A stretch of 64,000 nt of DNA from Punctularia strigosozonata HHB-11173 SS5. Lineage: Eukaryota; Basidiomycota; Agaricomycetes; Corticiales; Punctulariaceae. The translations under genes and the position numbers were made by a program. Shown one piece after another: positions 28,208-64,000 of this stretch (positions are counted from its first letter, which is position 1; each line of letters starts with the position of its first letter). Below the pieces are notes generated by a model that was given only the letters and a program-made list of their open reading frames with translations, did not search any database and had not been told where the DNA came from. The DNA lies in assembly GCF_000264995.1 (NCBI RefSeq), contig NW_006767435.1:62001-126000 (forward strand). Reading direction: 5' to 3'.

Positions 28208-30198
28208 ATGCAGCTCCCGGCTTGGTACACGTGCGTACCTCCCCCTTCCGTCTTACGATACGAACGACAACTGATACGATTACTCTAGAACGCCGACGAC
28301 GCAGGTCGTGCTCGTCGGCATCACCTGTTTCGCCACCGTCGGCATGTTCAGCGCCGTGTCTAACCTCGGCGCCGGAGGAACCCAGGACGTCTCCCTCTCC
28401 GACACCTCTAACGGTGTCCTCTACGGCATGTTCGCCCTCACCGGTCTCATCTCCGGCGGTATCAACAACCGTGCGTGTTCTCGCCCATGTACAGCCGCGT
28501 TTCTCCAGTTGACGCGTTCAATTATGTAGTGTTGGGCCCGCGGTTGACCCTCTTCTTCGGCACGCTCGGGTACGCGCTCTACGTCGGCGCTCTCTGGTGG
28601 TACGCACCCCTTCCCTCATTTCCTTCCCCATCTTCGCCGCAAACTCACGTCGTCTCTCCGCTCTCGTCGTGCAGCTTCCAAACCCAGGGCACGCGCTGGT
28701 TCCTCATCTTCGCCGGCGCGATCCTCGGCGTCACCGCCGCCCTGCTCTGGTCCGCGCAAGGCTCGATCATGATGTCCTACCCGCTCGAGAAGGACAAGGG
28801 CAAGGCCTTCTCCATCTTCTGGGCCATCTTCCAGTTCGGCTCCTTCATCGGCGCCCTCATCGCCCTCGCCATCAACATCCGCTCCGGCGGCCTCTCCGCC
28901 GTCTCGACGAGCACCTACATCGTGCGTTCCCTCTCCCGTCGGTGTGATCGTCCACGGTTTCTGACCTCCACGGGATCCGCGCACGCGCATTGCAGGCCTT
29001 CCTCGTGATCATCTTCGTCGGTATCGCCTCTTCGGCCCTCATCCTGCCCCCGCACCGCGTCGTCCGCGGCGACGGCACGCTCGTCACCCTCGCCCACCAC
29101 TCCTCCATCCACTCCGAGCTGCTCGGCATGGCCAAGCTCTTCACCGACTGGCGCGTCGCCGCCCTCCTCCCCATGTTCTTCTCCTCCAACTACTTCTACG
29201 CCTACCAGGGCGCCGTCAACGCCGGCATGTTCGACGGCCCCACGCGCGCGCTCAACGCGACGCTCGAGGGCGCCGGCGCGATCGTCGGCGCGCTCCTCAT
29301 CGGCTTCTTCGTCCTCGACGCGCCCGCGGGCCGGTTCAGGTACGGCCGGCGCGCGCGGGGTTATATCGGCCTCGGCGTCGTGACGGCGATGACGATCATC
29401 ATCTGGGCCGTCGCCCTCGGCTGGCAGGTCACCTTCACCCGCGCGGACGCCGCCAAGCTCCTCGCGAACGACGCGCTCATCAACTACCACGACGCCAACT
29501 ACCGCGGCAAGGGCGCCCTCTACTTCTTCTGTGCGTTTTTGCCCCTTCTTTTTTGAGAGGATCGGAATGGACTCAAAAGTTGCGCGACGGACAGACTACT
29601 TTGGCGACGCGTGCTACCAGGCGCTCGCGTACTGGATCATGAGCGCGATCACGAACGACCCCTTCCGCCTCGCTCGTCTCGCCGGTATCTACAAGGCCCT
29701 CCAGTCCGCCGGCGCCGCGGGATCCTTCGGCATGGACGCCGTCGCCACGCCCTACCTCAACGAGCTCGTACGTTTTTAACTCTCCCCCTCTAACCCTCTC
29801 ATCTCACCTTCATGGGATATATTCTGTAGCTCGCGAGCTGGTTGATGATGCTCGTCTCGTTCCCGCTCGCCTTCCTCGTGATCCGGACCATCAAGGAGAC
29901 CAACTACGAGGACGAGGAGGTCGTCTACGTCGACGACCTCAAAGCCGGCGCCGTCGAGTCCGGCGAGCTCCCCGCCACCACGCCAGCAGAGAAGGCCGAG
30001 ACCGAGAAAGCGAGAAAGCGAGCGTCGCGTCCCACTCGGCATGATGACAGACACCGACCGACCGACCGACCGGGGCTCTCCCCCTCTCTTCTGCTCGGGT
30101 TAGAGGCCTCCCCCACGCTCGGGGTTGAGGACGGGAGAGGAGGGGCCGTTGACTTTTCTTTGGTTACGACTTCGGACGGAGATTCGAACGACTGTTAA
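28208..30198 (+). CDS. UNC93-like major facilitator membrane protein, copy 1
   Basis: A polytopic membrane protein of the UNC-93/DUF895 branch of the MFS fold, with about 11-12 predicted helices. Exons are 28208-28230, 28289-28470, 28531-28599, 28675-28921, 28995-29530, 29595-29767 and 29830-30198. Motifs shared with copy 2 at 58.5 kb include SNLGAGGTQDVSLSDTSNGV, PLEKDKGKAF, DWRVAALLPMFF, NAGMFDGPTRALNATLEGAG and AITNDPFRLAR. The start at MQLPAWYT lies two codons after an in-frame stop, so this copy lacks the longer N-terminus of copy 2 unless an unseen exon exists. The tail after KETNYEDEEVVYVDD runs about 60 residues longer than in copy 2, through a GACC repeat, and looks unordered. Cargo is unknown. 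It converges on the TPR-CHAT gene. Confidence 0.88.
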
Positions 30199-30773
30199 TG
30201 GGTTTTTTTTGTTCTGTAGACGAGGCTTTTTCTTTTACGCGCGACGACGATATTAATGGCCCCCCCGCGCTCTCGGCACAACGATACGTATCATCAGCAT
30301 TGTATGTTTGTACGCTCGACTTGCATGAAACAGCGAAACGGTTTTTTTTTGTTCTTGTGGCGAGATCACGGGCGTCGACGTAGCGAATGAGGGCTGCCGG
30401 CTGCACAATGACACATACAACGACTTTGAAGCCCACCCAATGACCTCGCATAGTATCACTCCGAAGACATCTCATTACGTCGATACATCCCATGAACCTG
30501 AATACACTGAATAACCTCGAGGCGAAAGATACATCCACGGGCACCGCCATGCCCGTTATCCACCAAAAGAATGACAAGATTTCGAATTGTACGCTACCTG
30601 CTAGCTCTGGACGAGTACGCGCAGAGCTCCAGGTCTTGAAGTAGGTACGCCCGAAGCTTGACAGCATGCAAACGAATAGCTGAAAGGAAGAAAGGAACGA
30701 AAACTATCGATAATAAATACACTCGGTGCGCCATATCAAGTCGCGACCATGGCGAGCGGCAGAGGGGATTCTC
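30199..30773. other. Convergent 3' region between UNC93-like copy 1 and TPR-CHAT
   Basis: 575 bp between two facing stops. It must hold both 3' UTRs. Several T runs are present. No gene or RNA is seen. Confidence 0.6.
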
Positions 30774-33700
30774 TCACATCCCAAGATGCACGTAAAGAGC
30801 CCAGCGGCTCGGCTCTGGATGTTCCTCGCGCAGCTTCTGCACAGCTGCATCGAGCGCGTAAGGCACGTCGTCGGGATTGAGGACCTCCGAATCGCCTCTG
30901 AAGATTTCTTCGTACACCATCCGCGCGACCATCGGGCCGTCTGCATCCTCCATGTTCCTACGCCATACTCTTGGTTTCCATACCAGACGCGCGGAACAGT
31001 CGGAAGCTTACCACAGTGTCGCAATCACGCTCTTAAACCCGGCGTAAAGCATCATGGCCGCGAGATGGATCGCCTGATCGGGTTGATCCTGTGTAAATGT
31101 GGTCGGTGGGCACGGCATATGCATTTGAGAGCACCGTCGCGCTGACCTTGTACCCCTTTGCGGTCTCGCACGCGCTCAAGAAAGCCAGAAATGCCCCCGG
31201 AAGCACAACCGGCATCAGGCGCTCCATCGTCAGTATACCATCCCGCATTACAAAAGCACTCTTCAATGGGTGCTCCGCGTCTTGAATGCCGTGACATGCG
31301 AGATGAAGGAATGTTGCATCAGGGAGACGATCAAGGAGCGTCTGCACACCTAATCCTCCCTTGCCTCCCTTTTCCGTCGAGAGCAGCGCGTTGTCCTCGT
31401 CCGGGAGCGGAATGAGCATTGCACTTGGAACGACACTGGTTATCGACTTGACTTCGTCAACGGTGCAAGGTAATTCCGCATATGCAGATTTCGCTCGAGG
31501 GACAGCTCCGACGAGGACCTTCGTGTGCTTCCTGTGGACGGGTTTGTAGGCCTCACGGGAGCCAGACAATACCGTCAGAGTTGGCGTGTAGGATGAAACG
31601 ACGTAGTCCGAACATGAAACTCCGTTGGCGCCGGCTGCGTGAATCGGGAGGTGGACCAGGCTACCCGTGGGGCACCACCACAAGCGGGGACGGAGGCGGC
31701 CGTTCGAGGGCTAAGGTGTATTTCTTGTTAGACAGGCTTTCGGTGACGTATCGAGTTCCTACCGTCAATCCTAGTGCATTGATGATAGGTTGAACGACCT
31801 TGGACCACAGGCTTTCCAGGATATCGACACCTGCAGGGCGATTGACTTTGCGTGGCCTCGTCATGTTCAATCTGTCCCGGCTCACGGCCGATCTTGCTTC
31901 ATCCATGGCGGATCTCCACCGTGCGCTTGACTCCGTCACCCATGATTCAGTCAAGTCATCTAGAGAAACGTGGATTGGTGCGACATTGGCCTGTACGATT
32001 ACCGCATGAGACCCATTCGTGCTTGCTATCAACATGACGACCGGCCCTTTGTTGGCGGCTTCGACAAGTGTCGAATACTGATCATGCAGCATGAATCTCT
32101 CGAGGCCAGGTAAAGACCGGATGACGGTCAGAAGTGCGTGGAACTCTTCGCTTTGTCTCCGACGGAGCGAGGCCGCTTGTTCTACGTGCCGTTGGTCCGG
32201 GAAAGCGTCTGAGATGTCCGCATTCTTTTCGAGACGTTGAGCTAGCTCGAGAAGCTTCGTACGGTACTGTTCGGGGACGTTGTCGAAGTGAGAACGCAAT
32301 CGAAGGGTGTGGGCCCAAAATATGGCCCGACCTTGCTCGAGTATCTCCACGGCCCTTTCGGGTTGCGAGATCTGAAGGGCGAGGGAGGCGCATGTGGGCG
32401 TCAGCCGCTGGCCTGCTTCCAAAGACTTCAGACGTGAGTCGAGGTCCAGCCCAAAGTAGGCCACGCGAGGTAACAATGATAGCAACACTGAGTAGGTATC
32501 GAGGAGCTTGGTTTTTGCGGAGATTTCGTCTACCGATGACACTTGGATGGACCGGAGTACCCTCATAGAGCCTTGGACACGAGATCGGACATCACGCGCG
32601 TCGTCAGATATCGCTTCCAACAGGTAGTTCAGAGCAGCACAAATATCGTTGAAAGGGGTGCCCACTTCTAGGTATGTCTCGGAGGCGTTGAGGAGACAGT
32701 CAAAACGGTCTGGGCGCCCAGGAGCCAGGCGTCCCAAAAGGTTTTCGAACACGGTTTTGGCTGCTCGGGCGTCGTCTATGCGTCTCCCCATGCGATACTT
32801 GACCATGTATACTGAACCCAGCATACTCCGGTAACGTGGCCCATGTGAAGAGTCAGGCGCAACGACGGTCACATTATGCTCCAACAGGTGCACCGCATTG
32901 CACACATCGCCCAGATTCCCACTGTCTTGGGCGCGCATAGCCAGTGCGTTTGCGTGCGCAAGTACGATTTGGGAGCGGAAGGAGTGGTCAATGGAATAAT
33001 GGTCGAGCATTGCCGAAGAGATAGAGATGGCTTGATTCAGATCTTCCCTATCGCCAAGGGCCTTGAAGCGAACAGATAAGGCAGACGCCATTGCGAGATA
33101 ATGTTCCCCGTATGTGGTGTTTGTGATAGCAGCCATGTCGTAGGCCTCCTGGTAAAGCGCGATGGCCTCCGAAATGTCGTCGATGTGCCCAAGCTCCCTG
33201 AAACGTATGCTGAGGCTATCAGCCAGATTTCCCATGCGAATGCGCCAAAAAGTGCTGCTCCTGGGAGTGCTATCAACTAGCTGACGTTGCAAATCGAGGG
33301 AGTCCTCGAGGTCATCCAAAGACCCGCGCCAGATGAAGCGCTTCTGCAGGCCAATGGCCAGGTTACTGAGGCAATTGGCATGGGTGTGATTACCGGGACT
33401 GGTCAGCTGGAGTGTCTCCTGCAACCACGCAACCATCTGGTCGAGATCCTCCTCTGTGACGTCCGCGACCCCAAGCAGGAGATCCAGGGTTGATGCCGCC
33501 GCGGATAAGATATAAGGCCTCCACGCTCCGTTCGGAGGCCCTGCCGACAATGCTTGCATGGCCATCTCGTGTGCTTCGTGCAGGTCGGTTAGCTGACCAT
33601 CGCGACCGAAGAGACACCGTAGTGCTTGATTTCGCCTGCTCAAGATATGCTCGCGGCCGACATATGATATTGGACAAAGATCAACCGATGTCCTGTGCAA

Positions 33701-34408
33701 AGCAACGGCCTCATCCAAATCTGCAGGGTCGCCCAGGACCTGGAAGCGTATATAAAGGTACATCCCCAGAAGGCTGAAATAGTTATGCTCGTCAGGATAC
33801 TTGTGTATGGATGCTAGTTCAAGTGCGATTCGCTGCGAGGCAATCGCTTCATCGATATGCGAGCGCTCGTGTGTCATTTCAAATAGCCGCCATGACGCGT
33901 TGTTGACATTACGGAGGGCATTCGCGCGAAGGGGGTGCTCGTAGGACAGTAATGGTACTGCCTCGCGACACAGATTGTCTCCAAGCTTCCGGTGTGCGGC
34001 ATTGCCGCGTTTTTCTGCATCCAGGTGGAGGATGTTTCCTGACAACGTCAGCACTGTGGGACAGGAGAGAGATCGGGCTTCCGCTGCGGCTAATGCCTCT
34101 TTTGCGCGAGTGACGGCATCTACAAGGTCTTTCTGGTCTCCGACAAATTTATATCGTTCACTATAGGCGCGGGCGAGGTAGGCGCAGGCATGCAGCCGCG
34201 AAGCGGGTAGCGCAGCCGCCTGCTTGTGCGATGATTCAGATGGAGACAATCGGGAGGCTGTAGGTAGTACGAACATCGGGATTTACTCCGGCCAGTCGTT
34301 CCCACTTGTGGATACAATCTGCTGCCGCATTGAGGTCCCCAGTCTTGCGGAATTCCTCGAATAACCGCAAGGCCTTGATGTGGTTCACATCCGTGGCATG
34401 TTGGATCA
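30774..34408 (-). CDS. TPR-CHAT protein (tetratricopeptide repeats plus caspase-like CHAT peptidase), apparently whole
   Basis: Likely a cytosolic protease whose CHAT domain is controlled by a long TPR solenoid. Exons traced on the minus strand: 34408-34275, 34219-31763 (819 codons of TPR-type helices such as DLDEAVALHRTSVDLC and ADSLSIRFRELGHIDD), 31710-31147, 31088-31012 and 30957-30774. The CHAT domain has the catalytic His in FLHLACHGIQD and Cys in FLSACETAKG, followed by AIHLAAMMLYAGFKSVIATL and the tail RWALYVHLGM. That makes about 1,140 residues; the first exon is not resolved, and its acceptor is taken at 34409-34410 by comparison with the paralogue at 62416. The donor at 31146 (GTCAGC) is non-standard but needed to keep frame. 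CHAT is a caspase-clan fold; in bacteria TPR-CHAT proteins are defence proteases. A role in fungal cell death here is inference. Confidence 0.88.
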
Positions 34409-37400
34409 CTGTCGCCCATCAGCGGAACGCAGACACACGAGGGAAAAGAACGGAACCCGCAGTGCATGGGCATGGAGTCTTCTGATGTTTGCTCATGAGA
34501 TGGCTGCTGGACTGCAGGGTTGTAGAGGAACCTGCAGTGTCTGACGATCAGCAGATGCGGAGAAGGGAAGGAGGATGTGTACTTCAAGAAGACCACATCC
34601 ACGCTCTTGTAGATGCTGCACGATTGTTGCTGTAACGCATTCTGGCGCGCTTGTTATGGCTATACTGGCTTGAGAGTGTGCGCATGATGCATTCCGGACT
34701 GCCAAATACGAGTACGACGGATTGCATTGGAATGACAAAGAATGCAATGCAAACCTGCGACAGGTGGTGATTCTACTGGACGAGGAAGTAATGGTTGGCG
34801 CTGACTGTGTGTATTTCGATCGGCATTTATCTTCGAACTCGGGGTAGGGAGGTTGTTCCATAGTGATGTTCGACGCGGTACCAGAACTATACAGCCACCT
34901 TGCAGCCGTGAAGCTGATGTACCGTTACGATTCCATTTGTCACCCACGGTGCGACCTGCGCGCCCTCCCGCCCAAGCATAGTCCCCCATCTTCCATGCAT
35001 CTTCGGAATGGAACCAAACCCAAAGCCAGCCATGGCCTCCTTACCGCCGTTCTGCATTTGCCCGGAACCCGAGCTCGATGCTGGACATCAGATTGAGCTG
35101 CTACGCACGGGTTCGTTTCGCCAGTTCGCTAGCGATGTGTCCCGAGGACGTTACGAACATGGTGCAGACAACCATAATGCGGTGCCGTCGACCGAGGAAG
35201 GTGGCCCGGTCGGCAGATGGCGCAAACTCGCGCTTGTCCGGTCGAACAGACATTGCCGTCCATGATAGTTGGCTCCGGCCATCCGATACAGTAATGATAT
35301 TCATCAGGTTTCAACCGCACGCCCACATCAGCCCCTCCGTGTTCGCAGCTGTTCCTGCCCTCCGCTACCCCCGCCTTGACGGTCAGTCAAACGACTCGCT
35401 TGTTGTCCAAATCTTCAACGCTGACATACCCCGCTCGTCCAGAAGTCGACCACGAACCATAATCTACCGCACTGGAAGTTATCACCCTCGACTCATGGTG
35501 GTACCACACTTGGACACAACGGCACCACTACACCCGTCCAGCCTTTCTTCCTCAACGTCTTCCCTCTATCTTTACCGCTTCCCGCCTGCAGCTCCTTCAG
35601 GCATTAGAGTGTATCTTCAGCACAGGCGAGGTGGGGTGGCTGTTTTACCATGCACTGCATTTCTGGCGGGGCTCCCCGCCAACATCTTTGGCTACTGCGG
35701 AGAACTTTTACCACCTGTAGGTCCATTCCATTTCTACCTCCTCTCCCGTACACCGACCACCGCTCCCCCAGAAATCTTTCGGAAGCGTGGGATCCGTCCC
35801 TCAGAGATTCAGGGCCTTCCTAGGGAATCAGGGCCCGGACGTGGCGATATCTCCCGCCCACGTCTCCGCGCGCTTCTAGCGCGCCAAGCTAGTGAACGAC
35901 TGTCTTCGCTGCGCATCGAGTGGTTGACTGGGAAGACTAGTGCCAAGCTACACCGGTGGCAGGCATCGGGCGCAAGATTCGTACGCGCGTCGGCAGCACC
36001 AGCTAGCGCTCGGCTTCATTCTCCGGCTCGAGTCGTCGACAAGCCTATTGCACGGTCCCATCTCGCACCCGCGCGCCGCGTCGTGGTCCTGCTACTCGCG
36101 CTCTGCATCATATGCGGGCCCTCGCCCCGTTGTTGACTAAGCCTAAGTTGAGCCACGCACTCGAGCCAACACTATAGCTGGTCGTCGACGTTAATTCTTA
36201 GCCGCAGGCTAGCGCCCTCTGTCGTCCGCCTCTTCTCCCGCCTTGTCGACATCTTCCGCAACGGTGACTCTTGGAAACCGCTGGCGATTTCACGCAAGGT
36301 CGCACTCGCACTCGATGCAACAACTCGTTGGACACCCCAGCTCGCTACACTGCTTCCGGTTATAATTATCCCCGTATCCCGCGATATCTATTTCCGATTG
36401 CTATGTCTTGTGCAGACGCGCATCAAGCCTCGAACGATTGCAGGATCCCCACCTTAACCTTCAACAATTCTGGAATCCCGACGCACTCACGGGCTGCCCT
36501 GAACCTGCCCCAAGCCGCTGATAGCTCACATGAGAAGCCATGTAGGCGGTGCCCAGCTCCAGTCTACAACTGGCATGGCGCCGGCGTACCCGCGATCTCC
36601 CGCTGTGTCAGTATGCATCCAATCTTGTTTCGCGCGGGGTTCTTGAATCCCATTCAGTGTTCCTCCATGTTGAAGCACACTACATACGGGGAACCGACAT
36701 TGCCATAAATCCGAGGGTATCATTCTCACCTCATCGATTGGTTTCAGCTCCTGCTTGTTTGCGCCAGGTTCGGGTCATCATGCATGTCTCTCACTGAGCC
36801 GTCCAAGAAGCACCAGAAGCCGCCTCCCCGTCAGACAGCTTCCGATCTCGACATGTGACTAAAACGCGCGCCAAAACGAGCGATCTGGATGCGAAATCTC
36901 GAAATGAATATCCATTTTGAAAGCTGTCTGTCGAAGCAGGCTACCCATTGGAAAGCTGATTGAGCCGCATTCCAAATTCTGCATGTGCTCCGTGGAAATT
37001 TTGGACTGCGACGATGTTGACTCGATCTAATTAGATCTACGCATTGCCCCTTGGGGACGTGTCTCGAGTTTCGAGGGAATGATGAACACTTCCTGTCGCC
37101 TTTCAATGTGCATGAACCATAGAAGCCGTCGCGGGATGCGTTAACGGCACAGCTCAATAGCGCTCGACCCGCCTTGATCGCGATCCTACGACGCAGTCAT
37201 CACGAGTTTGCTATTTCTCGCACTGTACGATCGTCGCCGGAATGCATTCGTGGCACAGCCGCTGCTTGCATGGGAGTGCGCAGCCATACGATTAACCTCC
37301 CCCGCTCATCCTTGCATCCCCATTCAGAAGATAACCATGAGCCCGTGGAGGCTAAACTGGACGGTGCTACCTGGGTTCATGGTCCCACCATGCCCAGAAA

Positions 37401-37480: not shown

Positions 37481-39109
37481 CTAGTAGGGTTTCCGCTCGG
37501 TGAGCGAGATGGTGTTCGCAGCGATGTTGAACGTCGCGACGACGTTGTGTAAGAAAGTATCGCCCCTATCACGCGCAGAAAAGAACGTCTCAGCAAACTT
37601 TCGTCGCAACCTCGCAGTCTGTTGCTCTGGTACTCACAGGATGAAGATGTTGCCATCCTCGTCCGGCCCGCCGTCCTGCGTTCCAGAGATGCAGAGCTGT
37701 TTGCCCTTCTCGTCCGCGCCGATGGGCAGGATGTTGTCCTTCCCGCTCACGCTGAACTCGACACCGCCGATGGTCACCGCGAAGTCGGGAGCGGTCGCGT
37801 TGCAGTCGACGTAATACGTCCCTTCGTCCTCGACGTACTTGGCCGCGGGCTTAAAGCCTTTGTTGAACGCCTTCGCGATCTGTGACAAGACAACCACGAG
37901 TTAGAATGTGCGAAGGTAACCGTGTAGTGATATAAAACGCACGGGGGTGGGGACGTAGTTGAGCGTGGTGCCGGTGTCGAGGATGGCAGAGCCGTTGGTC
38001 GCGAGCTTATGCGAGCCGGGGAAGACGTACGAGTCGACGTCGACCGTGTAGAAGAAGTCTTCCTTGGCTGGCGAAGAGGACACCGTGTAGCCCTGGACGG
38101 CTACGGTGGTGGTCTTGCCCGTGACGGGGACGGGGGCGATACCGCCGAAGGCGAGGTAGCCAAGGTGGGGATCGAGGGTCGAGTTTTGTTCGGCGGGGAT
38201 CGAGCCGCGGTCAAGCGCGATGGAGAAGACTGCATGGGTCCCTTAAGTCAGCTTTCCAGAAGAGAAGGTACGTGGAAGAATGACGCACAGGGTGAGGAAA
38301 CCTTTCTTTCCTTCACGGCGGTGAAGAAGAACGGGTCGTACGGGACAAAGTTGGAAGACGAGTCGTCATCCGGGTTGGAGCCGTTGTACACGCTCGTGAT
38401 CCCGGGGTACGCGAGACCGATGAGCCCAGTGTTGACGCCGTCGCCGTCCCATGCCGCAGCGGTGACCACACCGATCTCCTGCTTGGTCACAGTGAGGCCG
38501 CCAACGGTGACGGTGTCGAAACCGACGGGTCCGTTCAAGAACTCGTTGTCGCCGTAGGTGATGTTGAAGTTCTTATCCGGGTATGACACGAACGTCTTTG
38601 ATTTAGAGGGGTCGAACCCGGGCGTGCCAAAGGCACAATCGGCCGCAGGCTGAGGCGTGTCGGAAAGGTCGAAGCACTTGAAGCCAACCTCCGCGAGCCA
38701 TGTATCGGAACTGGAAGGCAGTAGGCGCGATGAGCGACCTGAAAATGGAGTATTGTACGCGCCGCACACACCTTCCAGTATCGACGATGACCTTGAAGCT
38801 CTGACCGCCAACGGTGATGTCGGTCAGGTACTCCTCGTCCTGGTCCGAACCAGCCAGCGTAGAGGTAGGCGTCTTCGAACCCTTGCCCGGCTTGCCACCG
38901 CGGAAGCCGCGGATGGCTTGTATCATCTCCTTCTTGCGCGAGCTGCGGGGCGCCTTCGCCGTCAGGCTGACGGCGAATTCGGCCGCGGGCAGCGTCTCGG
39001 GCACCGCGTCGGCCTTGATCGGGAGCGAGACCGGGCGCACGGTGTGCGTCGTGGCGGCGCTGGCGGAGCCGGCAGCGGCGGCGAGGACGAGGAGCGCGAG
39101 GCGGGCCAT
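37481..39109 (-). CDS. Secreted pepsin-like aspartic protease, copy 3
   Basis: A more divergent A1-family relative of the two proteases at 20-26 kb, on the opposite strand. The start at 39109 gives a strong signal peptide, MARLALLVLAAAAGSASA, then a propeptide with a basic segment (SSRKKEMIQAIRGFRGGK). Introns are 38711-38771, 38230-38288, 37880-37942 and 37566-37637, at positions equivalent to those of the other two copies. Both active sites are present: VIVDTGSSDTW and AILDTGTTLNY. YGDNEFLNGPVGFDT replaces the usual flap-region sequence. It ends GDTFLHNVVATFN and ERKPY. It lies 3 kb from the TPR-CHAT gene. Secretion is clear from the sequence; its natural substrate is not. Confidence 0.93.
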
Positions 39110-48071: not shown

Positions 48072-51000
48072 ATGGCCAGGCCGCCGCCCTTGAGGCGTAG
48101 CACCACCGCGGCAGCGGCAGCAACACCTCCGCCCAAGCTAAAACCGGTCATCAATCTGGAGGAATGGGACGCGAAGACGCAACTCAGCGAGTCTGCGCTG
48201 CGGACCGTGCACCGAATCGAGCTGGCCAGCAAGAAAACGCCTTTGCCACCGAAGGTCAGCCCGAACTCGACCGGTGCTTGCGTCCTTTTTGTGCATCTGA
48301 TGACGGAGAGAAAGTCTAGTTTAGCTTGGAAGATCCGGAGAGTTCATCTCGTCCGTCCACCCCTGCTGGACTCCGCAACAAGCTGGGTGGGATAGCGGGC
48401 GGCTCACGGCCGTCTACGCCGTCCAATCGCCAGCACACGAGTACACATCCGCTCCACCCCAAAGCACCCATTCAGACGCCCCAACAGTTTTACGACTGGT
48501 ACGCGCTCATCGAGCGGTCGGTCGCGCGCAGCCAGGAGGCGCACTTCAGGGCACATCTCGACAATGTATCGTCGCACCTCGCTACTTGCGAGGAGCTTGC
48601 GCACAAGATCGACGAGGTGGACGGAGATATTTCGGGGATGTTGGAGCATTGGAAGCTTGTCGAGGATGGGGGGAAGAACTTGAAGGAGGCCTGTGAGCGC
48701 CTTCTCGAGGAGAGGGTGAGCAGCCGTCTTTCAAATTATCTCGCGCTGCTATACTGAACGAAGAAACTAGGACAGGTTGATCGGCACGACGGAGGAAATT
48801 GGACAACGACTGGAGTATTTCCAGGAACTCGAGCATGCGACTCGCATGCTCAATCATCCCGGAGAGTCGCTCGTCTTGCAGTCGGATTTCCTGTACATGG
48901 TAGAGAGGGTGGACATCTGCATCCAATACATGCAGTCTCACGTGGGTGTTCACGCTTCGAACCTCAACCCGGGTCTGACACGACTTCACAGCGGCACTTC
49001 CGCGAAGCCGAGCTGTACCTCCTCCGATTCCAACAATGCATGACCCGTGCCATGACACTCATCAAGATGTTCTTCGTCGGTTCCCTGCGCGCCCTGACGG
49101 CCGACGTTACGCGTCGCATATCGGAAAAGGTGAACCTCCCATCCGCTCGAGCAACGCAGTCGGCTCATGCAACCGCACAGGACGTTTCCCTCACCGCCCA
49201 ATCTCATCTCTTGTACACCCGCTTCAAGACTGTCGCGAACACCGTTCGCCCGCTCTTGAACGAGCTAGAACGAAGAGCCGCCGCCCACCCGGAGACGCTT
49301 TCGGGGCTGCTGGACGACTGCCATCAAGCCTATTTCACAGCGCGCCGGCGACTCCTCATCGACCGGCTCACGGAGGAGATCCGAGGCCTCGACCCTTCAC
49401 GGACGGAGTTGGTGGAGCTTGTGCGTTCGCCCCTCGATATTCATGCCAATCGTTGCCCCGTTGACCGTGACGCGACGCATGTGCATTTAGACCAGAGCGG
49501 GATGTAGCTACCTCAAGCAGGTGTGCACGGACGAGTTCATGCTTTTCCGATCGTTCTTCAACTCTGGCGAAGAGCTGCTCTAGTGAGTCTCCTAGCTCCC
49601 TGACGGGTAACCCGAATCTCATCTAGCCTAGCGAATACCTCGAGAAGCTGTGCGACTATCTCTACGACGACCTTCGTCCTCGTATCCTCCACGAACAGCG
49701 CCTCAGCGCCCTCTGCGAAGTCTGTACCGTCCTGCAGGCGCTTATGGTGCTCGATGTTCCAGTCGTCGAGGACGGCTCCGACGACGAAGACGACGAGGAT
49801 CTGCTTTTGATGATGGACCCCACGGCAGGCGGAAAGGCCGACCATCGCGGCCTGAGGCAACTCCAGATCGGCCACCTGCTCGAGATGGTCTTGCAAGACG
49901 CGCAAACCCGGCTGTTCTTCAAGGCCCAGGCGGTCATTCAATCGGATATCCGGTACTACGTACCCATAGCGGAGGACCTTGCATATCCTGACAAGCTGGT
50001 CGGTCAGTGCACGGGAACCCTTGGTAAAAAGATATGACGCAGCTGAGATGCTATATAGACGCGCGGAAGCCTCCACCGAGCAACGCGATCCGAGAGAAGG
50101 AGAGTGTCAGCGAGTTGTTCCATCTTCCGTCGATGGAAAGAAGGAGCACGTGGTATCCGACATTGGAGAGGACGGTATGGGTCCTGTCTCAGTTGCACGA
50201 CTTCGTCAAGGTAGGTTACGGATCTGTCTCCTCAGGCGATCATCAGCCACTGATAATCTTCCTGAGCAGCCCGAGATCTTCAATGACATGGCTCACGAGG
50301 CCATCAGCGTGTGCCTACAGTCGCTGGTCGTCGCGTCCGACCACATCAAGCAGCGGAACACGCCTAACAGCGCCTTGGATGGTGCTCTCTTCCTCGTTCG
50401 CCACCTCTTGATCTTGAAGGACATGACGAATACGCTGGACCTTGCCTCCAGGGCATCCGATTCTGTGACGGATCCTCACGGAATCAATGGTGAGTCAATA
50501 ACGAGTATTTAATTGTGACATGGCTCGAACTTTGCTTGTAGAAACGTTAGCCAACGTGTTGGGCAGGACGACATCACTGCTGCCCGCCGCGCTCTTCACC
50601 TCGCTGGGGTTGCCCCATGGCGAAGAGAGTATCTCGGACGCCAAGCATGTTAGCACTAGCGTTTCGTCAACACCCTCGGGAGCAGATGCACTGACCCAGA
50701 TCAACACAGGGCATCGACAAAGAGCTCCAGCGCGCCTGCGAGGAAGTGATCTTCCACTGCGCGGAGCCCATCTGCGCGCCGCTGCGGAACTGGCTCGATC
50801 GCGCCCGGATGTACAACCAGCAGAAACACGAGGCGCCGCTGATCTCCCAGGACTGGGCGACGCAGCCGAGGGCGGAGGAGCTCGAGAGCCACTTCAGGCT
50901 CGCGTGCGAGCGCGATCTGAGGGCGGCGGTGATCAGGATGAAGCTGTACCTCGAGGACGAGCGGACGGTGGGCGTGCTCGTGGTGCACGCGCAGGAGCGG

Positions 51001-54476: not shown

Positions 54477-55075
54477 AATTGTTTTGCGAAGCGGGGCGAA
54501 TACTGCTTGTGGGGGAGTTTCTGCTCGCCCCTTCGCTCCGGCGAGACGTTGTATGATTGTGCGCGGGCGTGGAGATGCGCACGACCGTTCGGCGCGCCGA
54601 TTTTCTCTCCTGTGTCTCGACTCAGCCTTTAATCCTTATTCGTGTGCGCGACCTCGACTTTTCGCTCGTGTCCAGCGTCGTTTCAACGCCGAACTCGTAT
54701 TCGGAGGGCGGCGCAACGGACCGTTCTACCTCATTTTTTTTTGGTACACATGTCCTTTTTGTAGCCTATGATACGATCGTATGTGTAGCCTTTATGGCTT
54801 GTAAATAGCGCGTGAACGTGCGTATTGGGCTCCAACTGCATGTGCTCGATGGGGACGAAGTAGTGCAGACACTCGCCGGAGCAAACGCGACGAAATTCGA
54901 CTTCGTCTCGATCAACGTCCTCGAAGTCTATGTAAGCACTGATGGATGTCGGACTGCGAGTGTCTGACTAGTCCATTGCGCCTACTCAGGAACTTCACGT
55001 AACACAAGGGCGTACATACTACTTGCGTACGATCAAAACCATCACATGATATCCAATGCTTTGCTGCAAACCACC
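54477..55075. other. Intergenic region with a spliced orphan frame
   Basis: Contains the 3' UTR of the PWWP gene and the leader of Trs65. It also holds a protein-like frame at 54809-55049, interrupted by a good 58-nt intron, described separately. Confidence 0.5.
54809..55049 (+). CDS. Orphan spliced frame upstream of Trs65, start not found
   Basis: Exon 54809-54931 reads LQLHVLDGDEVVQTLAG, then ATKFDFVSINVLEVY. It joins across intron 54932-54989 (GTAAGC donor, CTGAC branch-like box, CTCAG acceptor) to ELHVTQGRTYYLRTIKTIT and a stop. About 60 codons look like real protein, but an in-frame stop lies just upstream and no ATG is visible, so a first exon would have to lie before it, inside or beyond the 3' end of the PWWP gene. 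It is not in frame with Trs65. I do not recognise the family. Alternatives are a remnant of a gene or an upstream frame in the Trs65 leader. Confidence 0.35.
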
Positions 55076-58000
55076 ATGGCCGATTACGAACAGCTGTTCT
55101 CCAACTGTACGCTGGATGTTATCGTGCCCAGTGTCCAGGTCGAGTTCCCGAAGGGTCCCAGCAGCTCACCTGGACCCGAGTGGTGGTCCGCGTTGAAGGA
55201 CGAAGCGCGAGCGCGAGACCAGACATTCTTCGGTGAGGTAGAACATCCTGTCACTCAGGACGCGCACAATACTGACCGGCTTTTTTCAGACGAGCTCCTA
55301 GAGTTCTGGCTCGCGTTGCGCATCGACAGTACAAACGCCGAAGACGTGCCCGCGGATCCTGCAAAACCGCCTATCCACATCCTGGCCTTCCTCGCGCACG
55401 TCCAAGTCGCCTTGGAGGCCATGTACATCGCGCCTGCGCCCACGCAGAGCAGCTCGACGCTGCGGACGCCGCCGAGGACGGCGGCGTCCATGGGCAGACT
55501 GAAGCCGCCTCCGCAGAAGCGCGGGGCCGCGGCGCAAGCGGGCATCTCTATATTCCCGCCCACGACTCCACATCCGACGCCCGCTGCGAACGAGGCGGAT
55601 AAGCGCTATGCGAGGAGCGAGGGCACGATGCTGCTGGCTAGCGTGTGGGGCGAGAGTCCATCAAAGGAGGCGCAGGAGACGGAGACGTTCGCGCTGGCGT
55701 GGAATGCGACGGACAAGGTCTGGGTGGCCTTTTACAAGCTATCGTTGTCTGTAGGTGAATGCGCCATCTTGGTGGCTCACATACGGAGAGCTGATGCAAT
55801 TGTAGCGTTTCTTCGGATGAATGTCGCCAACCCGTTGTTGTGCTTAACGGTGTCGGCGACGTTGCGTGATAAAGCCATCGCCGTCACACCCGCTCGACAA
55901 CCGTTGCAAGATCTCATCGACGCAGTCGGCGGCCTACCCGCGGTGACATCCACCTCTGACGACTCATCGAGAGGCCTTGACGGCGACAAGCACACGAATG
56001 ACCTCAAGGGCCTTGATGAGGTCAATCTCCTCGAGGGACTTGCAGCAGGTACGTTATTGCTTTATCACCGGCGCAGCCTCCATCTCATTCACCAATCCAT
56101 AGCTCCTACGTTCTCCGATGACAAGTCACTTGTACTACCTTCGACACGATTGGGACCCTCCACCCGCAGACAGCTCTCTCTTGTCCCGCTTTCCGACTCA
56201 CCCTCTCAGAATGCCTCTCCCGCATCCAACATGACGACGGCACGGACGGCTCTCACGGGTACTTCGACGATGCGCAAATCCTACCGCAAGACCCTTCCGG
56301 CCGTGTCCGGCTTCACCGTGCGCATGCGCACTGTCTTCGTGCCCTACGTTCTCCTGCCTTCGTCCAACGTATCGGACGAGCTCGAGGCGGGAAGCGAGGA
56401 GAACACCGTCGTGCTCTGCGTCGAGATCGACAACACGGGCGACTCAGGCGTTGGCTTTGCGGTGGAGAGCGTGGACGTTAACATCGGTGGCGAGGGTGCG
56501 ACGGCCCGGTTGATAGGATGGGGAGAGACGGGGTTCCGCGACCCGGACAAAGTCTTTCCAATCCGGGCTGGCCCCTTGGAGCAGTACAACTTGCTTTATG
56601 CCGTGACGTTCTTGCGTCCGCCGGATGCGGACGAGGTGAGGCTCGGCCGACCCGATGCCAGGGCGGATCCACTCAAGGCGGGGGACTTGCAGAGGGCGGT
56701 GTCAATCGTGGTCAATGGGCGACCCTACGCCAAGCCCGAAGACGCTGCAACCAAGACCGAATACGAATATCCTACGCATCCGTTCTCCTCCCGATGGAAC
56801 TGCATCCTCGATCTCTCTCCGCGACGGAATCGGACGAGCCTTCGCGATTCGCGCGACCTTGAGAGCTTCGGCCTCTCTTCCGCGCGGGACGCCCTCCCCG
56901 AACCCGCTTCACCTTTCCCGGAAATAATGAGTCCGCACACCGCCAAGGCATCTACGTTCGCTCAGGCGCAAACGCAGGCATCCCCCGCTGCTGTAGCAGG
57001 CAGTAAGCGGCATACACTCGCCGCGATTACCACTAATATGGATCCTGGACTGCGCAAGACGGTGCCAGCGAACTACCGCTTGTCGACGTCGATGCTAAAC
57101 CCCGCCTTTCAACGAGACCGGGATTCGTTAGGGACGTACTTTCCCGCTGGCAAGGCGGGCTCCGCGACGGCGCTTCCACCCTCGATCAACATTCCGTCTG
57201 CTGGTAGACGTACGCCAACCACGTACGACGGCCCGAGCCCTGGCCCTGTGCCGCGCTCGCCCCCTCTTCCCGCTCTTCCACCCGGCGCAACTCGACCGAG
57301 CATCGACTCGAGCTTCGCGCAGGACGTGTACGCGGCCATACCCCCGACGCCCGCCTATCCGGCGTACGACCCGCAATCGCCGCTTCCCCCGATGGCCCAT
57401 TCTCAGGGACCCGTGCAGGGGCAGCACGCGGACGCGGTGGGCGTCGGCCCCAGCGTGGAAGCCCGCAGGCAGAGAGGGGTCGCGATGAGGGACGGTGTGG
57501 GCGCCGTGACGCCCGGTACTCCGGGACCTACGGCCGGTCTGAGCACCGGCACTCCGACCGGGTTCAATCAACTTGGGTTTGGCCTGAGAGCGGCGGGATC
57601 TGTGGGGCCGGACGAGGGAGAGCCTATCGTGGTCTCTGTGAGCTTGCTACCTCAGGAACGTTCGCGAGGCTCCAGCACCGATGATGAAGTCGACGAGGAC
57701 GAGGCGGATCAAAGAATATACCCATTGGACAAATTCACGCTGGACGTGTTCGTGTTCAACCAGTCGAGTTGGACCAGAAGGTTCGAGCTCAGCGTACCGG
57801 ACAAGAGGAGGAGGCGGCAGGAGAGGATAGAGGGCACGTACTTTTCCGACGTGCCCGAGGTATCTGGTGGTGGAGTGGACAGCGCATTTGCGAGCTCCGA
57901 GGCTCCCGGAATCGTCGCGCTGGAAAATCGGATTCGTATCGGGTGCGTTGCGTCGATGGCGTCGGTGTTAGACAGGAACGGAATACGTGCTGATGCAGCA

Positions 58001-58133
58001 TGACAGGCCGCTCAGGCCGTCGACGTGCCAGTCCATACGAATGGACTTCATGGCCCTCACACCTGGCGTGCATTGTGTTGATGCTCTCACATTGACCGAT
58101 GTCGAGACCGGATATACCGTGAACATGCGGTGA
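55076..58133 (+). CDS. TRAPPII complex subunit Trs65-like protein
   Basis: A subunit of TRAPPII, the exchange factor for the Ypt31/32 (Rab11) GTPases in late Golgi traffic. The start at 55076 (MADYEQLFSNCTLDVIVP) has good context, CCACCATGGC. Four introns are inferred: 55233-55289, 55755-55805, 56049-56102 and 57944-58006. The first three do not interrupt the frame, so they are easy to miss, but removing them restores TFFDELLEFW, LSVAFLRMNVANP and LAAAPTFSDD. The last joins VALENRIRIG to PLRPSTCQSIRMDFMALTPG and the end VETGYTVNMR, the conserved C-terminus of this family. A long Pro/Ser-rich insert (about 57000-57600) lies between the two beta-rich parts. About 950 residues. It converges on UNC93-like copy 2. 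Confidence 0.88.
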
Positions 58134-58527: not shown

Positions 58528-60429
58528 TTATGCGCCGGTCTGGGATGATATGCTCCCCGTGTCCTTTTCGTTCGGCGGTGCAGGGGAATCACCAGCATGA
58601 CCGCCCTCAACGGCGTCATGCTTGACGTCGTCGACGTAGACGACCTGCTCGTCTTCGTAGTTTGTCTCTTTGATTGTGCGGATCACAAGGAAGGCGAGTG
58701 GGAACGAGACGAGCATCATGATCCAGCTAGCTAGCTACGTTTCCAACATTGCACGATTAGCGAACCCCAGACGTCGAGTTCGGACAGGAAAGCTCACGAG
58801 TTCATTGAGGTACGGCGTTGCGACGGCGTCCATGCCAAAGGAGCCAGCGCCACCAGCGGACTGAATGGCCTTATATATGCCAGCGAAACGAGCAAGGCGG
58901 AAGGGGTCGTTGGTGATGGCACTCATAATCCAGTAAGCGAGGGCCTGGTAGCACGCGTCGTTGTAGTAGTCTAGTGCGGAAGTCGCATCAGAACGGACTC
59001 CTGCGCATAGCGCATAAACCGAGGAAAACGACCTACAAAAGAAGAAAAGGGGCCCTTTCCCTCTATACCTCGCCTCTTTGTAGTTGATGAGGCTGCCTTC
59101 GGCGAGCATTCGCTTTGCGTCCGTGCGATCGAATTTGACCTGCCAAGTGAGGGCCACCGCCCACACGATTATGGTGATGACGGTGACGACACCGAGGCCG
59201 ATATATCCACGCGTGCGACCTGGACGTCCCACAGTCAGGGCAAACAAAGGAAACGAAACCGCGATGGACGTACGTCCGAATTTGAACCTGGAGGAAGGAG
59301 CGTCGAGCACCAGGTAGCCGATCATCAGTGCTCCGATGATGGCCCCAGCACCTTCGAGCGTCGCGTTGAGGGCCCTAGTCGGTCCATCGAACATCCCGGC
59401 GTTGACGGCAGCTTGGTAGGCGTAAAAGTAGTTGGAAGCGAAGAACATCGGGAGTAGGGCGGCAACGCGCCAGTCGGTGAACATGCGTGCCATGGCAACG
59501 AGCTCCGTGTGGATCGAGGAGTGTTTTTGAATTGTCACGAGCGTGCCGTCGCCTCGGACGATGCGATCCGGTGGGAGGATCAGCACGGAGGAGGCCACGC
59601 CGACGAAGATGATCACGAGGAATGCCTGCGTGACTGAAGATAAGACACCGCCGTGAACTTGCGAGATGCGACGTACGATGTAAGTACTCGTGGAGACCGC
59701 ATCCAGCTTCCCACTCTCGATGTTGATGGCCAGCGCGATGATCGACCCGATGAACGATCCGAAAGAGAAGATCGCCCAGAAGATCGCGAACGCTTTGCCC
59801 TTGTCCTTCTCCAGCGGGTACGACATCATGACGGCTCCTTGCGCAGACCAGAGAAGGGCGGCGGTGACGCCCAAGACCGCACCTGCGAATATGAGGAACC
59901 AGCGGGTGCCTTGCGTCTGGAAGCTAGCACATGGGAATAGATCAGTACCGCGGTTCCAGACGCATCGGCGAACAGCTGGCGTACCACCACAAAGCGCCGG
60001 TATATAACGCATATCCCAGAGTGCCCAAGAAAAGCGTCAGACGGGGACCAAGTACTGATATATGAAATGAGCCAGGAGAGCGCCCGTTAAGGAGGGTCAC
60101 ACGGCCTACGATTGTTGATACCGCCACTGATAAGACCGGTGGCCGCGAACAGGCCGTACAGAACGCCGTTGGACGTATCCGAGAGCGAAACGTCCTGGGT
60201 ACCACCGGCTCCAAGGTTGGAGATGGCGCTGTACATTCCGGTGGTGGCGAAACAAGTGATACCCATGAGTACCACCTGCGTCATCGGCGTCCTGGATCGG
60301 TCCGACCAAGTCAGACAATTCATTTCGTCGAACATGCAAAAGGGCAACGTACGTGTACCAGGCCGGGAGCTGCATGTCTGCGAAATGACTGCCTGGGTAG
60401 GAGGGGGGTTGGGCGAATCCAAGCTGCAT
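58528..60429 (-). CDS. UNC93-like major facilitator membrane protein, copy 2
   Basis: A paralogue of the carrier at 28208-30198. The start at 60429 (MQLGFAQPPSYPGSHFAD) gives 18 residues before the MQLPAWYT with which copy 1 begins. The exon pattern matches copy 1, plus one extra intron after RFKFGR (about 59220-59276). Shared motifs: SNLGAGGTQDVSLSDTSNGV, PLEKDKGKAF, DWRVAALLPMFF, MFDGPTRALNATLEGAG, AITNDPFRLAR, KETNYEDEQVVYVDD. The tail ends 33 residues later at SSQTGA. About 11-12 membrane helices are expected. The substrate is unknown; relatives regulate potassium channels in animals, while fungal members are mostly unstudied. It is divergent to the TPR-CHAT paralogue at 62416. Confidence 0.9.
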
Positions 60430-62415
60430 TCTCCAGCTGGGGCCGAGATATAGGAAGTTCTCTAGTCTTGGCTATGAATAGCGTCTCCGCACCGAGAAGC
60501 GGTCTTGATTGCTTCCATGTCAGTCCCACACGTGAACCGAGGAAACGCCTTGGCCATGTCAATATAAATAGCTGGAATTGTGGTCATCCGGTCCGTTCCA
60601 GAAGGCGAGGCAGTGATGGGTCTTTGTCCAGTCCCAGAAGCTTAATGGACGATAGCAAAGTTAGTTAGATATCTGCCATGGAGTACGTGTGAGCGTGTAT
60701 TTACCAAATCAAAGTAATCAGCAATGGGTGATAGCCCCATCGGTGGCTCTGTGAACAAGAGCAAGGTCTTCGGGAGGCGTCCGAATTCCCCGTTCGGCGA
60801 GCTGACGGCTGTCGTAGCGTGACGGACGACGACGGTATGCTGGCCCGTTATCAATTGCATTCACCTTATCCCTACGTTTTCGGAGATTCATGCCGAGGCG
60901 CATATATTACGACCCGGCGGTTAAGAGGCCGAAAGCCGGATAGAAGATGTTTGATTGACCGAATGGGCGCGATCTGCGCGCAGTACAGATCGCGTAACGA
61001 CATGTACAGCTAATGCAGAAGTCATTGCAGACTCTAAGGTGCGAGATGAGCTGTCACTGATAATCCGAATATCAAACGCACATACAGCTTGTATCACATA
61101 CCTGCATCATTCCTTTCGCCTCTCGCACGTCGTAGACATGCAGGATAGGGAATTTTGAAAACACGAAGTGCAAGCACGTTGCTATCCGTGAAGTTGACGA
61201 CGGGTCCTCATGGTCGGAAGGCCTGGGATAAGACATGAGTGAACCCTCAACACAGGTGCATGAACACTGCGTTGGCCCTCCACATCACTCTCGGAAACAA
61301 GACACCAGGAAGGAGGGCTGGGCAGCTGGATAAAACGAATTCGCCACTCTCGCATGACCGACGCTCTCCGTTTTCTCTCCGTTTTTTTTTTCTTCTTTTT
61401 TCTGTCTGTGCACGGGATCAAGGCCGAGAAAGGCTGTAACGATGGTAGAGATGCAATCATTCATGGAGGGCCTGCATCAGACAACGCTCAGAACGGATGG
61501 CATGAAGCAGGATGATGGAGTACATGACACGAATCGTACCTGTCTTCATTGGAAGCCACAACGCCCATCGAATCCCGCTGGGCCGCATGGCATCATGCTT
61601 CGCAGGTTGCACGCTCAGCGCTCGAGTATTCTCGTCCTGTTCGTCGCATGGATTTACCTCGCTGTTTGCATCGACTCTGTAGTTGATCCCGTACGATTTA
61701 TCTTTGATGGACCATGACGGCCAGCAAAAGCCCCAGCGACAATGTGACATAGTCACATAGTGTTGAATTTTCAGTGATGATGGTGCAAGTGGTCAAGACA
61801 CGCGCCCGACTTTCCTCAGGCTCCGACCTACCTACTACCTACCTCCCAGTCCTGTCGCGGCTCTCTCTTGTCCCTCGCCTCATCCGCTACTCTTCGCCCT
61901 CTATCGGAGGTTCACCTTCAAATATTCGCAACACTGTCAATACTACTGCTTGATGCACCTTCTGATTGGACGTCTGCGAAGTTATAGCGAACTAAAGTGC
62001 GCGAGCTCTGCGTGGGCTGACGACAGTGATGTACCGCACTTTTTATCCTCTCTGTGCACAATTCAAACAGGATGCAACTCGTTCGAGAATCCGTGCCCAA
62101 CGGAACGTGCTGATTAGCAAGCCTTGAGGGTTCACAATGGCCATTCATGTGCACACTCCCATGCGATGCAAACATAGCTGCTGTGCGAGCATTCATTTCG
62201 GCGAAGATTTCACTTGCAACAGCAATTCAACCTCGGCGCGTGAACCACGGTTACGTTTCTCCCTGTACGTGTACCGCCGCTCGTTCGCTGCACCGTTCAT
62301 TCATCACCGAGCATCATAGGATTCTCGTCAGACAGCCTTGTAGTCGAACCATCTTCTAAGTCTGCGAGTTTCATGTGCACACATTCGAAGACTATCTGCG
62401 GATGCGCTGCCGGTA
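60430..62415. other. Divergent intergenic region of 2.0 kb
   Basis: Should hold the promoters of UNC93-like copy 2 (minus) and of the TPR-CHAT paralogue (plus). An AT-rich TATATTTATAG-type element lies about 130 bp before the UNC93 ATG (near 60560-60570). Remaining open frames are short and unassigned. Confidence 0.5.
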
Positions 62416-64000
62416 ATGTCCTCCACCTTGGTGCACAGTCAAGACGCTCACGTCTCAGGGAACGCAGTACCTCAAGAGACGCTTGATGATGGCAACGCTG
62501 AGGCCCTGCGCTTATACGAAGAATTCTGCAAGACTGGGAATCTAGGAGCTGCTGCGGCGTGTGTTCAAAAGTGGGAGGACATATCAGTCGCAGATTCCGA
62601 CGTACGTACGCCCTACGATCTCCTCCTGTCAGCCGTCTGAGACGTCATAGAATCAGGGGGCTAGGCCACCAGCGCAACTTCACGCTTACATCTACCTCGC
62701 TCGCGCACTTCTCGCTCGATATCACTTCGCTGGAGACCAGCAAGACCTCGTAGACGCCGTTACCCGCGCGAAAGAGGCGATAGCCGCAGCCGATACGCAA
62801 AACGTATCATGTACGACTGTGTTGGCATTGTCGGGCAATATCCTCCGCGTCGACGCTGATTCCCGCGGCAATGTCGAACATCGAAAGTTAGCGGACGACC
62901 TGTGCCGCGAAGCAATTGCACTGCTCCAGGACGATCATCCCCTGCGCGCAAATGCCCTCCGCAACGCCAGTGTCACTCCAATGAGACTCTTCGAAACCAC
63001 GGGCGAGCGCTCGCATATCGACGAAAGCCATCACGTTCCAGCGAACAGCGCTCGAACTCGCATCGACCCACCACTATCCGGACGAGCACGACTACTTCAG
63101 TGTTTTGGGCCTGTACCTCCTCCGGCGCTACGAGGTCCTGGGTCACACGCCGGATTTGGACGAGGCTGTCCCTTTGGTAAGGACGTCGGTTGATCTATGC
63201 CCATCGTCACACGTCGACCGCGAGCGTATCTTGATCAGACTAAGTTGGCCCTGTATCGCCGTTTCGAACGCGACGGTCAAGTAGCCGATCTCTACGAAGC
63301 ATTCGAGGTGGCCAAACAGGCGTTGTCCGCGGGACCTCCCAACGGATCCGCAAGGACGTATACGTTGGCCACAGCGGGAGGAATCCTTACGGGTCTGTTT
63401 GAGGTCTCGGATGTTACGGAGTCCGATCTCGATCAGCTCGTTGCATGGCGGCAGGAGGCTCTTCGGTTGGCCCCTCCCGGCCATCATTCCCGCCCCTATC
63501 ACCTCAACAACGTCGCCGAGGCCCTCCAGCGACGTTTCTTCTGGCACGGGTCGTTGACCGACCTTGAAGATTCCATCGAAGTTCAGCGCCAGCTAATTGA
63601 TAGCGTACCGAGGAGCGACACAGCCTGGCGTGTTCACGTGGGTAATCTAGCGGACAACCTTGGCACACGCTTCAAGGAGCTCGGCCACGTAGACGACATT
63701 TCGGAGGCCGTCGCGTTATACCGTGACGCCCATGACGAAGCCGCGATCACGAATCCTACATATCAATCTCATTATCTCGCGATGATGTCTGCGTTATCCC
63801 TTCGCTTCGAGGTTGTGGGGGACAGGGAAGATTTGGACCAAGTGATAACTCTGTCCAGTGCCATGCTCGATTACATGCCAGCGGACCATTCCGTCGTTCC
63901 CCAAGTCTCACTTGCGCGCTGCGATGCCCTCATTCTGCGAGCACGAGACGGGGGCAGCCTGGAGGATGCGCGTGACGCGGTGCAGTTGCTGGAGCGAAAT
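62416..64000 (+). pseudogene. TPR-CHAT paralogue, 5' part only, with two frame breaks (3' end outside window)
   Basis: Close relative of the gene at 30774-34408. Exon 1 (62416-62601, MSSTLVHSQD ... KTGNLGAAAACVQKWEDIS) joins across intron 62602-62656 to the TPR region (LHAYIYLARALLARYHFAGD ... LALSGNILRVDADSRGN). The frame then shifts near 63025, after GERSHIDE; it continues as ITFQRTALELASTHHYPDEH and shifts again near 63240, after which KLALYRRFERDGQVADLYEA runs open to the window end. Both breaks fall in sequence conserved in the intact paralogue, so introns do not explain them. The CHAT part, if present, lies beyond the window. Either a young pseudogene or a gene with base-call errors; protein similarity to its paralogue remains high. 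Confidence 0.75.

What the first reader, a model, noticed from the sequence alone, without database searches (positions are those of the whole stretch)
28208..64000. UNC93-like carrier and TPR-CHAT gene duplicated as a pair
Each of the two UNC93-like genes sits next to a TPR-CHAT gene: 28.2-34.4 kb (convergent) and 58.5-64 kb (divergent). The pairs are 30 kb apart with core genes between. Gene order and strands cannot be explained by one simple inversion, so the partners moved or were retained together through rearrangement. A membrane carrier repeatedly linked to a caspase-like TPR protease is not an association I know of, and it could mark a functional module.
Basis: partly seen in the sequence, partly recalled or inferred. 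Interest (0 to 1): 0.75.

Follow-up and report, generated by a model that had tools for sequence, protein, structure and literature searches.

The report
Rearranged cluster of duplicated neighbouring genes
Two neighbouring genes, for a membrane carrier and a caspase-like protease, occur twice in this stretch of what looks like a fungal chromosome, but they are part of a larger, partly decayed patch of local gene duplications that includes a third protease family, and nothing yet shows that they work together.

Summary
In detail: UNC93-like gene A (+) faces TPR-CHAT gene A (-) tail to tail at 28.2-34.4 kb, and UNC93-like gene B (-) lies head to head with TPR-CHAT gene B (+) from 58.5 kb to beyond the window end. 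The "duplicated pair" picture is too narrow. A pepsin-like aspartic protease family accompanies both pairs (three copies plus a relic), and a CHAT relic lies left of UNC93-A. The genome holds four close UNC93 paralogues, all on this contig, two remote ones, and about 78 CHAT gene regions. In neither family are A and B sisters: UNC93-B groups with a copy that has no CHAT match within 20 kb, and CHAT-A with a copy not beside any UNC93 found. CHAT-B's reading frame is broken. 4 of 6 UNC93 genes lie within 5 kb of a CHAT gene, but copies share descent and CHATs are dense here; collapsed to lineages, P is about 0.004-0.02. Best reading: linkage inherited through local duplication, rearrangement and decay. 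A functional UNC93-CHAT module, by analogy with CHAT-gasdermin clusters, is possible but weakly supported. The decisive test across related fungal genomes could not be run.

The parts
20149..21553 (+). pepsin-like A1 aspartic protease copy 1
   Evidence: Pfam Asp E 3.5e-15 on ORF 20337-20813; 65.6% DNA identity to copy 2
24300..25699 (+). pepsin-like A1 aspartic protease copy 2
   Evidence: Pfam Asp E 2.9e-16 and 2e-4 on two ORFs; inverted match to copy 3
25839..26293 (+). relic of a TPR-CHAT gene: front and rear parts of the CHAT domain, the middle with the His and Cys motifs missing, frames with stops
   Evidence: blastn to CHAT-A 74% and 79%, also to CHAT-B and the 354-kb CHAT; frames read
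28204..30198 (+). UNC93-like gene A; spliced model 28290-29959, 5 introns, open frame; 5' exon not resolved, stop no later than 30198
   Evidence: model; Pfam UNC-93 over cut-off; 70.6% DNA identity to gene B; ORF end
30774..34418 (-). TPR-CHAT gene A, open in the model; motifs HLACHG and SACETAKG present; probable N-terminal exon within 34236-34418
37632..38823 (-). pepsin-like A1 aspartic protease copy 3
   Evidence: Pfam Asp E 2.1e-15 on ORF 38251-38823; inverted relative to copies 1 and 2
48758..49504 (+). COG3-like gene (one ORF of it) between the pairs (context)
   Evidence: Pfam COG3_C E 2.7e-16, COG3_N E 2e-10
54968..58003 (+). 1011-aa ORF, weak Trs65-like hit, left of UNC93-B (context)
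   Evidence: Pfam IgD3_Trs65 E 2.6e-4, below cut-off
58528..60379 (-). UNC93-like gene B; spliced model 60290-58602, 6 introns, open frame; 5' exon not resolved
62344..64000 (+). TPR-CHAT gene B (continues to about contig C3:128084, beyond the window); reading frame interrupted: a stretch at about 63025-63240 lies in another frame and the original frame meets a stop there
   Evidence: an A1 protease relic follows at C3:128162-128500, outside the window

Best explanation
This is a local cluster of duplicated genes in birth-and-death turnover. A neighbourhood on contig C3 with an UNC93-like carrier gene and a TPR-CHAT gene, at two of the places together with a pepsin-like aspartic protease gene, was copied locally more than once. 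Small tandem or inverted copies, inversions, single-gene copies (UNC93-D, the CHAT at 354 kb) and decay (CHAT-B, the CHAT relic, the protease relic) then scrambled order and strands. The two families remain neighbours because they were neighbours when copied (inferred). Shown here: the copies, their order and strands, the third family, the trees, the broken copies. Inferred: the order of events, and the activity of the single proteins, which follows their families: UNC93-like proteins are MFS-fold membrane proteins linked elsewhere to potassium channel regulation, and TPR-CHAT proteins are caspase-like proteases in sensor-type proteins.
For: Four close UNC93 paralogues (72-86% protein identity) all lie within about 405 kb on C3. 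Of the 64 matches listed for the CHAT-A repeat region, the ones above 50% identity other than itself are all on C3 (354 kb 63%, B 58%, a fragment at 21 kb 54%). The A1 protease subfamily is local: the best 4 of 8 matches (the query itself included) lie on C3:2-101 kb, and a relic lies right behind CHAT-B. Left of UNC93-A the order protease, CHAT relic mirrors CHAT-A, protease on the right. In neither tree are A and B sisters. With the local CHAT density, at least 3 of 4 C3 UNC93 genes within 5 kb has P 0.047.
Against: 4 of 6 UNC93 genes within 5 kb of a CHAT gene is more than expected even after collapsing to three lineages (2 of 3; P 0.0035 at genome density, 0.0175 with local density for the C3 lineage), and the C2 case is on another contig with remote sequences. 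Pairs A and C share the same tail-to-tail arrangement with about 0.5 kb between (estimated gene ends), which drift need not keep. The protease is seen at A and B only: no match near UNC93-C or D, so a three-gene block is not shown for those. The older nodes of both trees could agree (p-AU 0.11 for one C3 CHAT clade). No intergenic DNA similarity between the copies was found that would mark block ends.
Confidence: 0.72

Rival explanations
1. Functional two-gene module: the TPR-CHAT protein senses a signal and cleaves or controls the neighbouring UNC93-like membrane protein, so that linkage is kept by selection, as with fungal gasdermins and their proteases.
For: 4 of 6 UNC93 genes near a CHAT gene; CHAT A, B, C1, C2 and the 354-kb copy keep HLACHG and SACETAKG motifs; 19% of fungal gasdermin genes lie within 10 kb of CHAT protease genes, and a TPR-bearing CHAT protease activates a gasdermin in Podospora anserina (passages of PMC10197012, and PMC12881547).
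Against: CHAT-B is broken while UNC93-B is open; UNC93-D and F have no CHAT match within 20 kb; about 74 of 78 CHAT gene regions are not within 5 kb of an UNC93 found; at A and B an aspartic protease is linked as well; A and C are tail to tail, so they share no promoter.
Confidence: 0.12
2. Chance neighbourhood: a large CHAT family, dense at the start of C3, happens to sit beside a few UNC93 copies.
For: 80 CHAT matches genome-wide, 8 of them in C3:1-510 kb, plus a fragment and a relic there; with these 10 regions the local chance of one UNC93 lying within 5 kb of a CHAT is 0.244.
Against: Genome-density P for 4 of 6 is 2.1e-5 if genes are counted singly, 0.0035-0.0175 by lineage; the third family and relics at A and B point to real common descent.
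Confidence: 0.13
3. Clean co-duplication of the pair as one unit at matching nodes, followed only by rearrangement.
For: Rooted on C, the UNC93 tree (C,(A,(B,D))) can be laid on a CHAT tree ((C1,C2),((A,354k),B)) with single-gene copies added.
Against: A and B are sisters in neither tree; UNC93-D lacks a CHAT nearby and the 354-kb CHAT is not beside an UNC93 found; a CHAT copy from contig C17 joins A/B/354k ahead of C1/C2 with 88/89 support. A third family is also copied.
Confidence: 0.03

Closest known systems
UNC93 family (PF05978), MFS superfamily
   Same: Pfam UNC-93 and MFS_1 over their cut-offs on gene A
   Different: Four close local copies and two remote ones here; Hebeloma cylindrosporum is stated to have one UNC-93 gene (passages of PMC7678990). 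A profile of the four copies matched no solved structure by sequence
TPR-CHAT proteases (PF12770, caspase HetF associated with TPRs)
   Same: CHAT domain over cut-off, His and Cys motifs present, repeat part alignable across 16 copies of the genome
   Different: Repeat part hits TPR only weakly; neighbour is an UNC93-like gene rather than a gasdermin; Pfam gasdermin gave no hit in this genome, but that search rang in no control either, so it shows nothing
Fungal gasdermin-protease two-gene clusters
   Same: A CHAT protease gene beside a gene for a membrane-acting protein
   Different: UNC93 is a multi-pass carrier-like protein, not a pore former; no cleavage or cell-death evidence; a third protease family is linked at A and B
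Birth-and-death gene clusters from local segmental duplication
   Same: Several families copied in one region, inverted copies, relics, single-gene copies
   Different: Nothing that sets it apart was found

Membership tests
UNC93-like MFS protein | UNC-93 profile over its cut-off | tested here: met
   59.9 bits against 22.9, gene A
UNC93-like MFS protein | open full-length gene | tested here: met
   A, B, C, D modelled without frame shifts or stops over about 442-445 residues; 5' exon unresolved
UNC93-like MFS protein | regulates a potassium channel or receptor trafficking | not testable with these tools
   needs an experiment
TPR-CHAT protease | CHAT profile over its cut-off | tested here: met
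   74.2 bits against 24, gene A
TPR-CHAT protease | TPR repeats before the CHAT domain | tested here: inconclusive
   TPR_10 at 20.3 bits, cut-off 27.5; weak matches to kinesin light chain structures, E 0.32-0.5
TPR-CHAT protease | His and Cys of the catalytic pair | tested here: met
   HLACHG and SACETAKG in A, B, C1, C2, 354k; that these are the catalytic residues is recalled, not tested
Conserved two-gene module | co-occurrence as neighbours in other genomes | not testable with these tools
   no collection of related eukaryote genomes is held; own genome only
Conserved two-gene module | both partners intact at each locus | tested here: not met
   CHAT-B frame interrupted; UNC93-D and F without a CHAT match within 20 kb
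Conserved two-gene module | matching tree nodes | tested here: inconclusive
   tips conflict, deeper nodes not excluded
Local segmental duplication cluster | more than one family copied, with relics, in one region | tested here: met
   UNC93, CHAT and A1 protease copies and relics

The most novel reading that the evidence does not exclude
UNC93-like carriers and TPR-CHAT proteases form a selected sensor-effector pair in this fungal lineage, in which the protease controls the carrier's amount or activity, in the way that CHAT proteases control gasdermins; the remote case on contig C2 would then be an old member of the same association.
Probability: 0.1. Interest if true: 0.7.

Novelty: new member of a known kind. 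Interest (0 to 1): 0.3.

Why it matters
If the link is only inherited position, it is a clear example of how a dense protease family produces suggestive neighbourhoods by local duplication, and a warning against reading function from two copies in one genome. If it were functional, it would add a carrier-type target to the known CHAT-gasdermin clusters and give the large CHAT families a second testable partner. Searches for papers holding both 'UNC93' and 'CHAT domain' found 0, and 'CHAT domain' with 'Agaricomycetes' found 0, in the held open-access library only; subscription journals and preprints are not in it.

Tried and rejected
Pfam alone undercounts UNC93 genes (4 matches); protein queries added a remote one on C2 and another on C9 (the C9 one was not fetched or modelled). 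Synonymous distances were computed to date the copies but are near saturation (fourfold-site differences 0.54 for UNC93 A-B, 0.62 for CHAT A-B) and UNC93-A has GC3 0.955, so they were not used for dating. An UNC93 tree with the remote copy E as outgroup has branches of 4.6-4.8 to it and weak support inside, so the root stays open. The gasdermin search was uninformative: no hit here and none in the controls. Profile searches of solved structures gave none for UNC93, only weak matches for the repeat part (11 listed, best E 0.027, a designed helical repeat protein), and none for the CHAT exon. tblastx of the segments gave many short pairs that were disregarded as noise because their E-values are summed, and part of that output was cut. 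Subtelomeric location was considered: a pattern of four TTAGGG units was found at ends of other contigs but not on C3, so it is not shown. Paper searches were seen as listings; passages were read in three papers.
Full report
What is there. The window is C3:62001-126000 of a 33.6-Mb genome in 32 contigs. The two UNC93-like genes match each other at 70.6% over 1837 aligned columns in inverted orientation, and the two TPR-CHAT genes at 66.1% over 3648 columns, also inverted. Spliced models of both UNC93 genes are open. CHAT-A is open. CHAT-B is not: a stretch at about window 63025-63240 continues in another frame, and the original frame meets a stop. Whether that is decay or an assembly error cannot be told here. 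A further stop that one search reports near the start of CHAT-B lies where CHAT-A probably has an intron, and is not counted.

How many copies. A Pfam search finds 80 CHAT matches, all over the cut-off, which merge to 78 gene regions with estimated ends. For UNC93, Pfam finds 4, a protein query 5 genes, and a query with the fifth one a sixth: A, B, C, D on C3 within about 405 kb, E on C2, F on C9. A-D are 72-86% identical in protein; E is about 31% from them over some 285 residues. Counts from these searches are lower bounds by the tool's own statement.

A third family. Comparison of the region with itself shows more than the pair. A pepsin-like A1 aspartic protease (Pfam Asp) has copies at window 20.1-21.6 and 24.3-25.7 kb (+) and at 38.8-37.6 kb (-), and a frame-broken relic begins 78 bases behind the CHAT-B match end, at C3:128162. 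This subfamily is local: a query with part of copy 3 gave 8 matches, itself included, of which the best 4 are on C3:2-101 kb. No protease match lies near UNC93-C or D, so the third family belongs to A and B only. Left of UNC93-A lies a CHAT relic at 25.84-26.29 kb that lacks the middle of the domain. Around UNC93-A the order is thus protease, CHAT relic, UNC93, CHAT, protease, with the two arms inverted. Around B it is UNC93, CHAT (broken), protease relic.

Trees. CHAT: in a tree of 14 of the 30 modelled repeat regions, A pairs with the copy at C3:354 kb (100/98) and B lies outside (100/100 for the three); holding A and B together is rejected at p-AU 0.024; C1 and C2, the CHATs beside and next to UNC93-C, pair with each other (100/100). 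The five C3 CHATs as one clade are not rejected (p-AU 0.11); in the best tree a copy from C17 joins A/B/354k with 88/89, and copies from C10 and C7 lie unresolved in the same group of eight (the 30-row tree agrees). The 30 rows are the best-scoring matches to CHAT-A, so they are not a fair sample of all CHATs. UNC93: the unrooted tree of A-D has the split AC|BD with 100/99 support, and 20 amino-acid sites favour it against 3 and 2. UNC93-B's sister D thus has no CHAT match within 20 kb (nearest region 20.6 kb away), and CHAT-A's sister is not near any UNC93 found. A clean copy of the pair at the tips is not what these trees show; one older shared split is not excluded.

Statistics. Gene ends are estimates there: 2700 bases before and 450 behind each CHAT match, and typed ends for the UNC93 genes; for E the CHAT reading frame starts only at C2:665404, which makes the gap about 3.5 kb. 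Between E and its CHAT lies another gene, judged by eye from its translation to be of the 2-oxoglutarate oxygenase type (recalled, not searched). At genome density 3.5% of positions qualify; counted gene by gene P is 2.1e-5, by three lineages (A-D, E, F) 2 of 3 gives 0.0035, and with the local density for the C3 lineage 0.0175. For the four C3 genes alone with local density, P for 3 or more is 0.047. These are rough tests of a hypothesis suggested by the same data.

Mechanism. The plainest account is local duplication followed by rearrangement and decay. One route, inferred, that needs a single inversion: a small array U> <C <C U> (locus C still shows U> <C <C) with one end inverted together with adjoining genes gives both arrangements seen. 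Pairs A and C are tail to tail, so no promoter is shared; B is head to head with about 2 kb between. Low dN/dS among UNC93 copies (0.04-0.13 in the 5 of 6 comparisons with finite synonymous distance, which is near saturation) suggests that the carriers are kept, including B, whose CHAT is broken, and D, which has none found beside it. That speaks for UNC93 working without a linked CHAT.

Known context. Passages of two reviews state that about 80% of fungal gasdermin genes are clustered with protease genes, 19% within 10 kb of CHAT protease genes (PMC10197012), and that a TPR-bearing CHAT protease activates a gasdermin in Podospora anserina (PMC12881547). A CHAT gene beside a gene for a membrane protein is therefore a reasonable lead. 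UNC-93 proteins are tied to potassium channels in the nematode and to potassium translocation in Arabidopsis, and the one UNC-93 gene of Hebeloma is induced in ectomycorrhiza (passages of PMC7678990). No paper in the held library holds both 'UNC93' and 'CHAT domain'.

Verdict. The genes and their order are as described, with corrections. The reading as a duplicated functional pair is only partly supported. The finding is a rearranged, partly decayed local duplication cluster of known families, with a mild excess of UNC93-CHAT proximity that only other genomes can judge.

Noticed in passing
window 28290-29959: UNC93-A has GC3 of 0.955 against 0.65-0.74 in its three close paralogues, which suggests high expression or biased gene conversion.
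   Followed up: no
C3:2000-2272, C3:82-101 kb, C3:128162-128500: The A1 aspartic protease subfamily of the window has its closest matches only in the first 130 kb of contig C3.
   Followed up: partly
L048, L049, L050, L053, L061: Five CHAT genes on contigs C14, C13 and C9 have end branches of only 0.06-0.09, so a subfamily has spread recently between contigs.
   Followed up: no
L068 and L035 (C2:659-669 kb): Remote UNC93-E lies within 5 kb of a divergent TPR-CHAT gene with motifs HIACHA and SACGTARG, with another gene between.
   Followed up: partly
C2 both ends; C9, C19, C30 starts; C24:2590: Runs of TTAGGG lie at contig ends; C2 looks telomere to telomere, C3 shows none with this pattern.
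   Followed up: no
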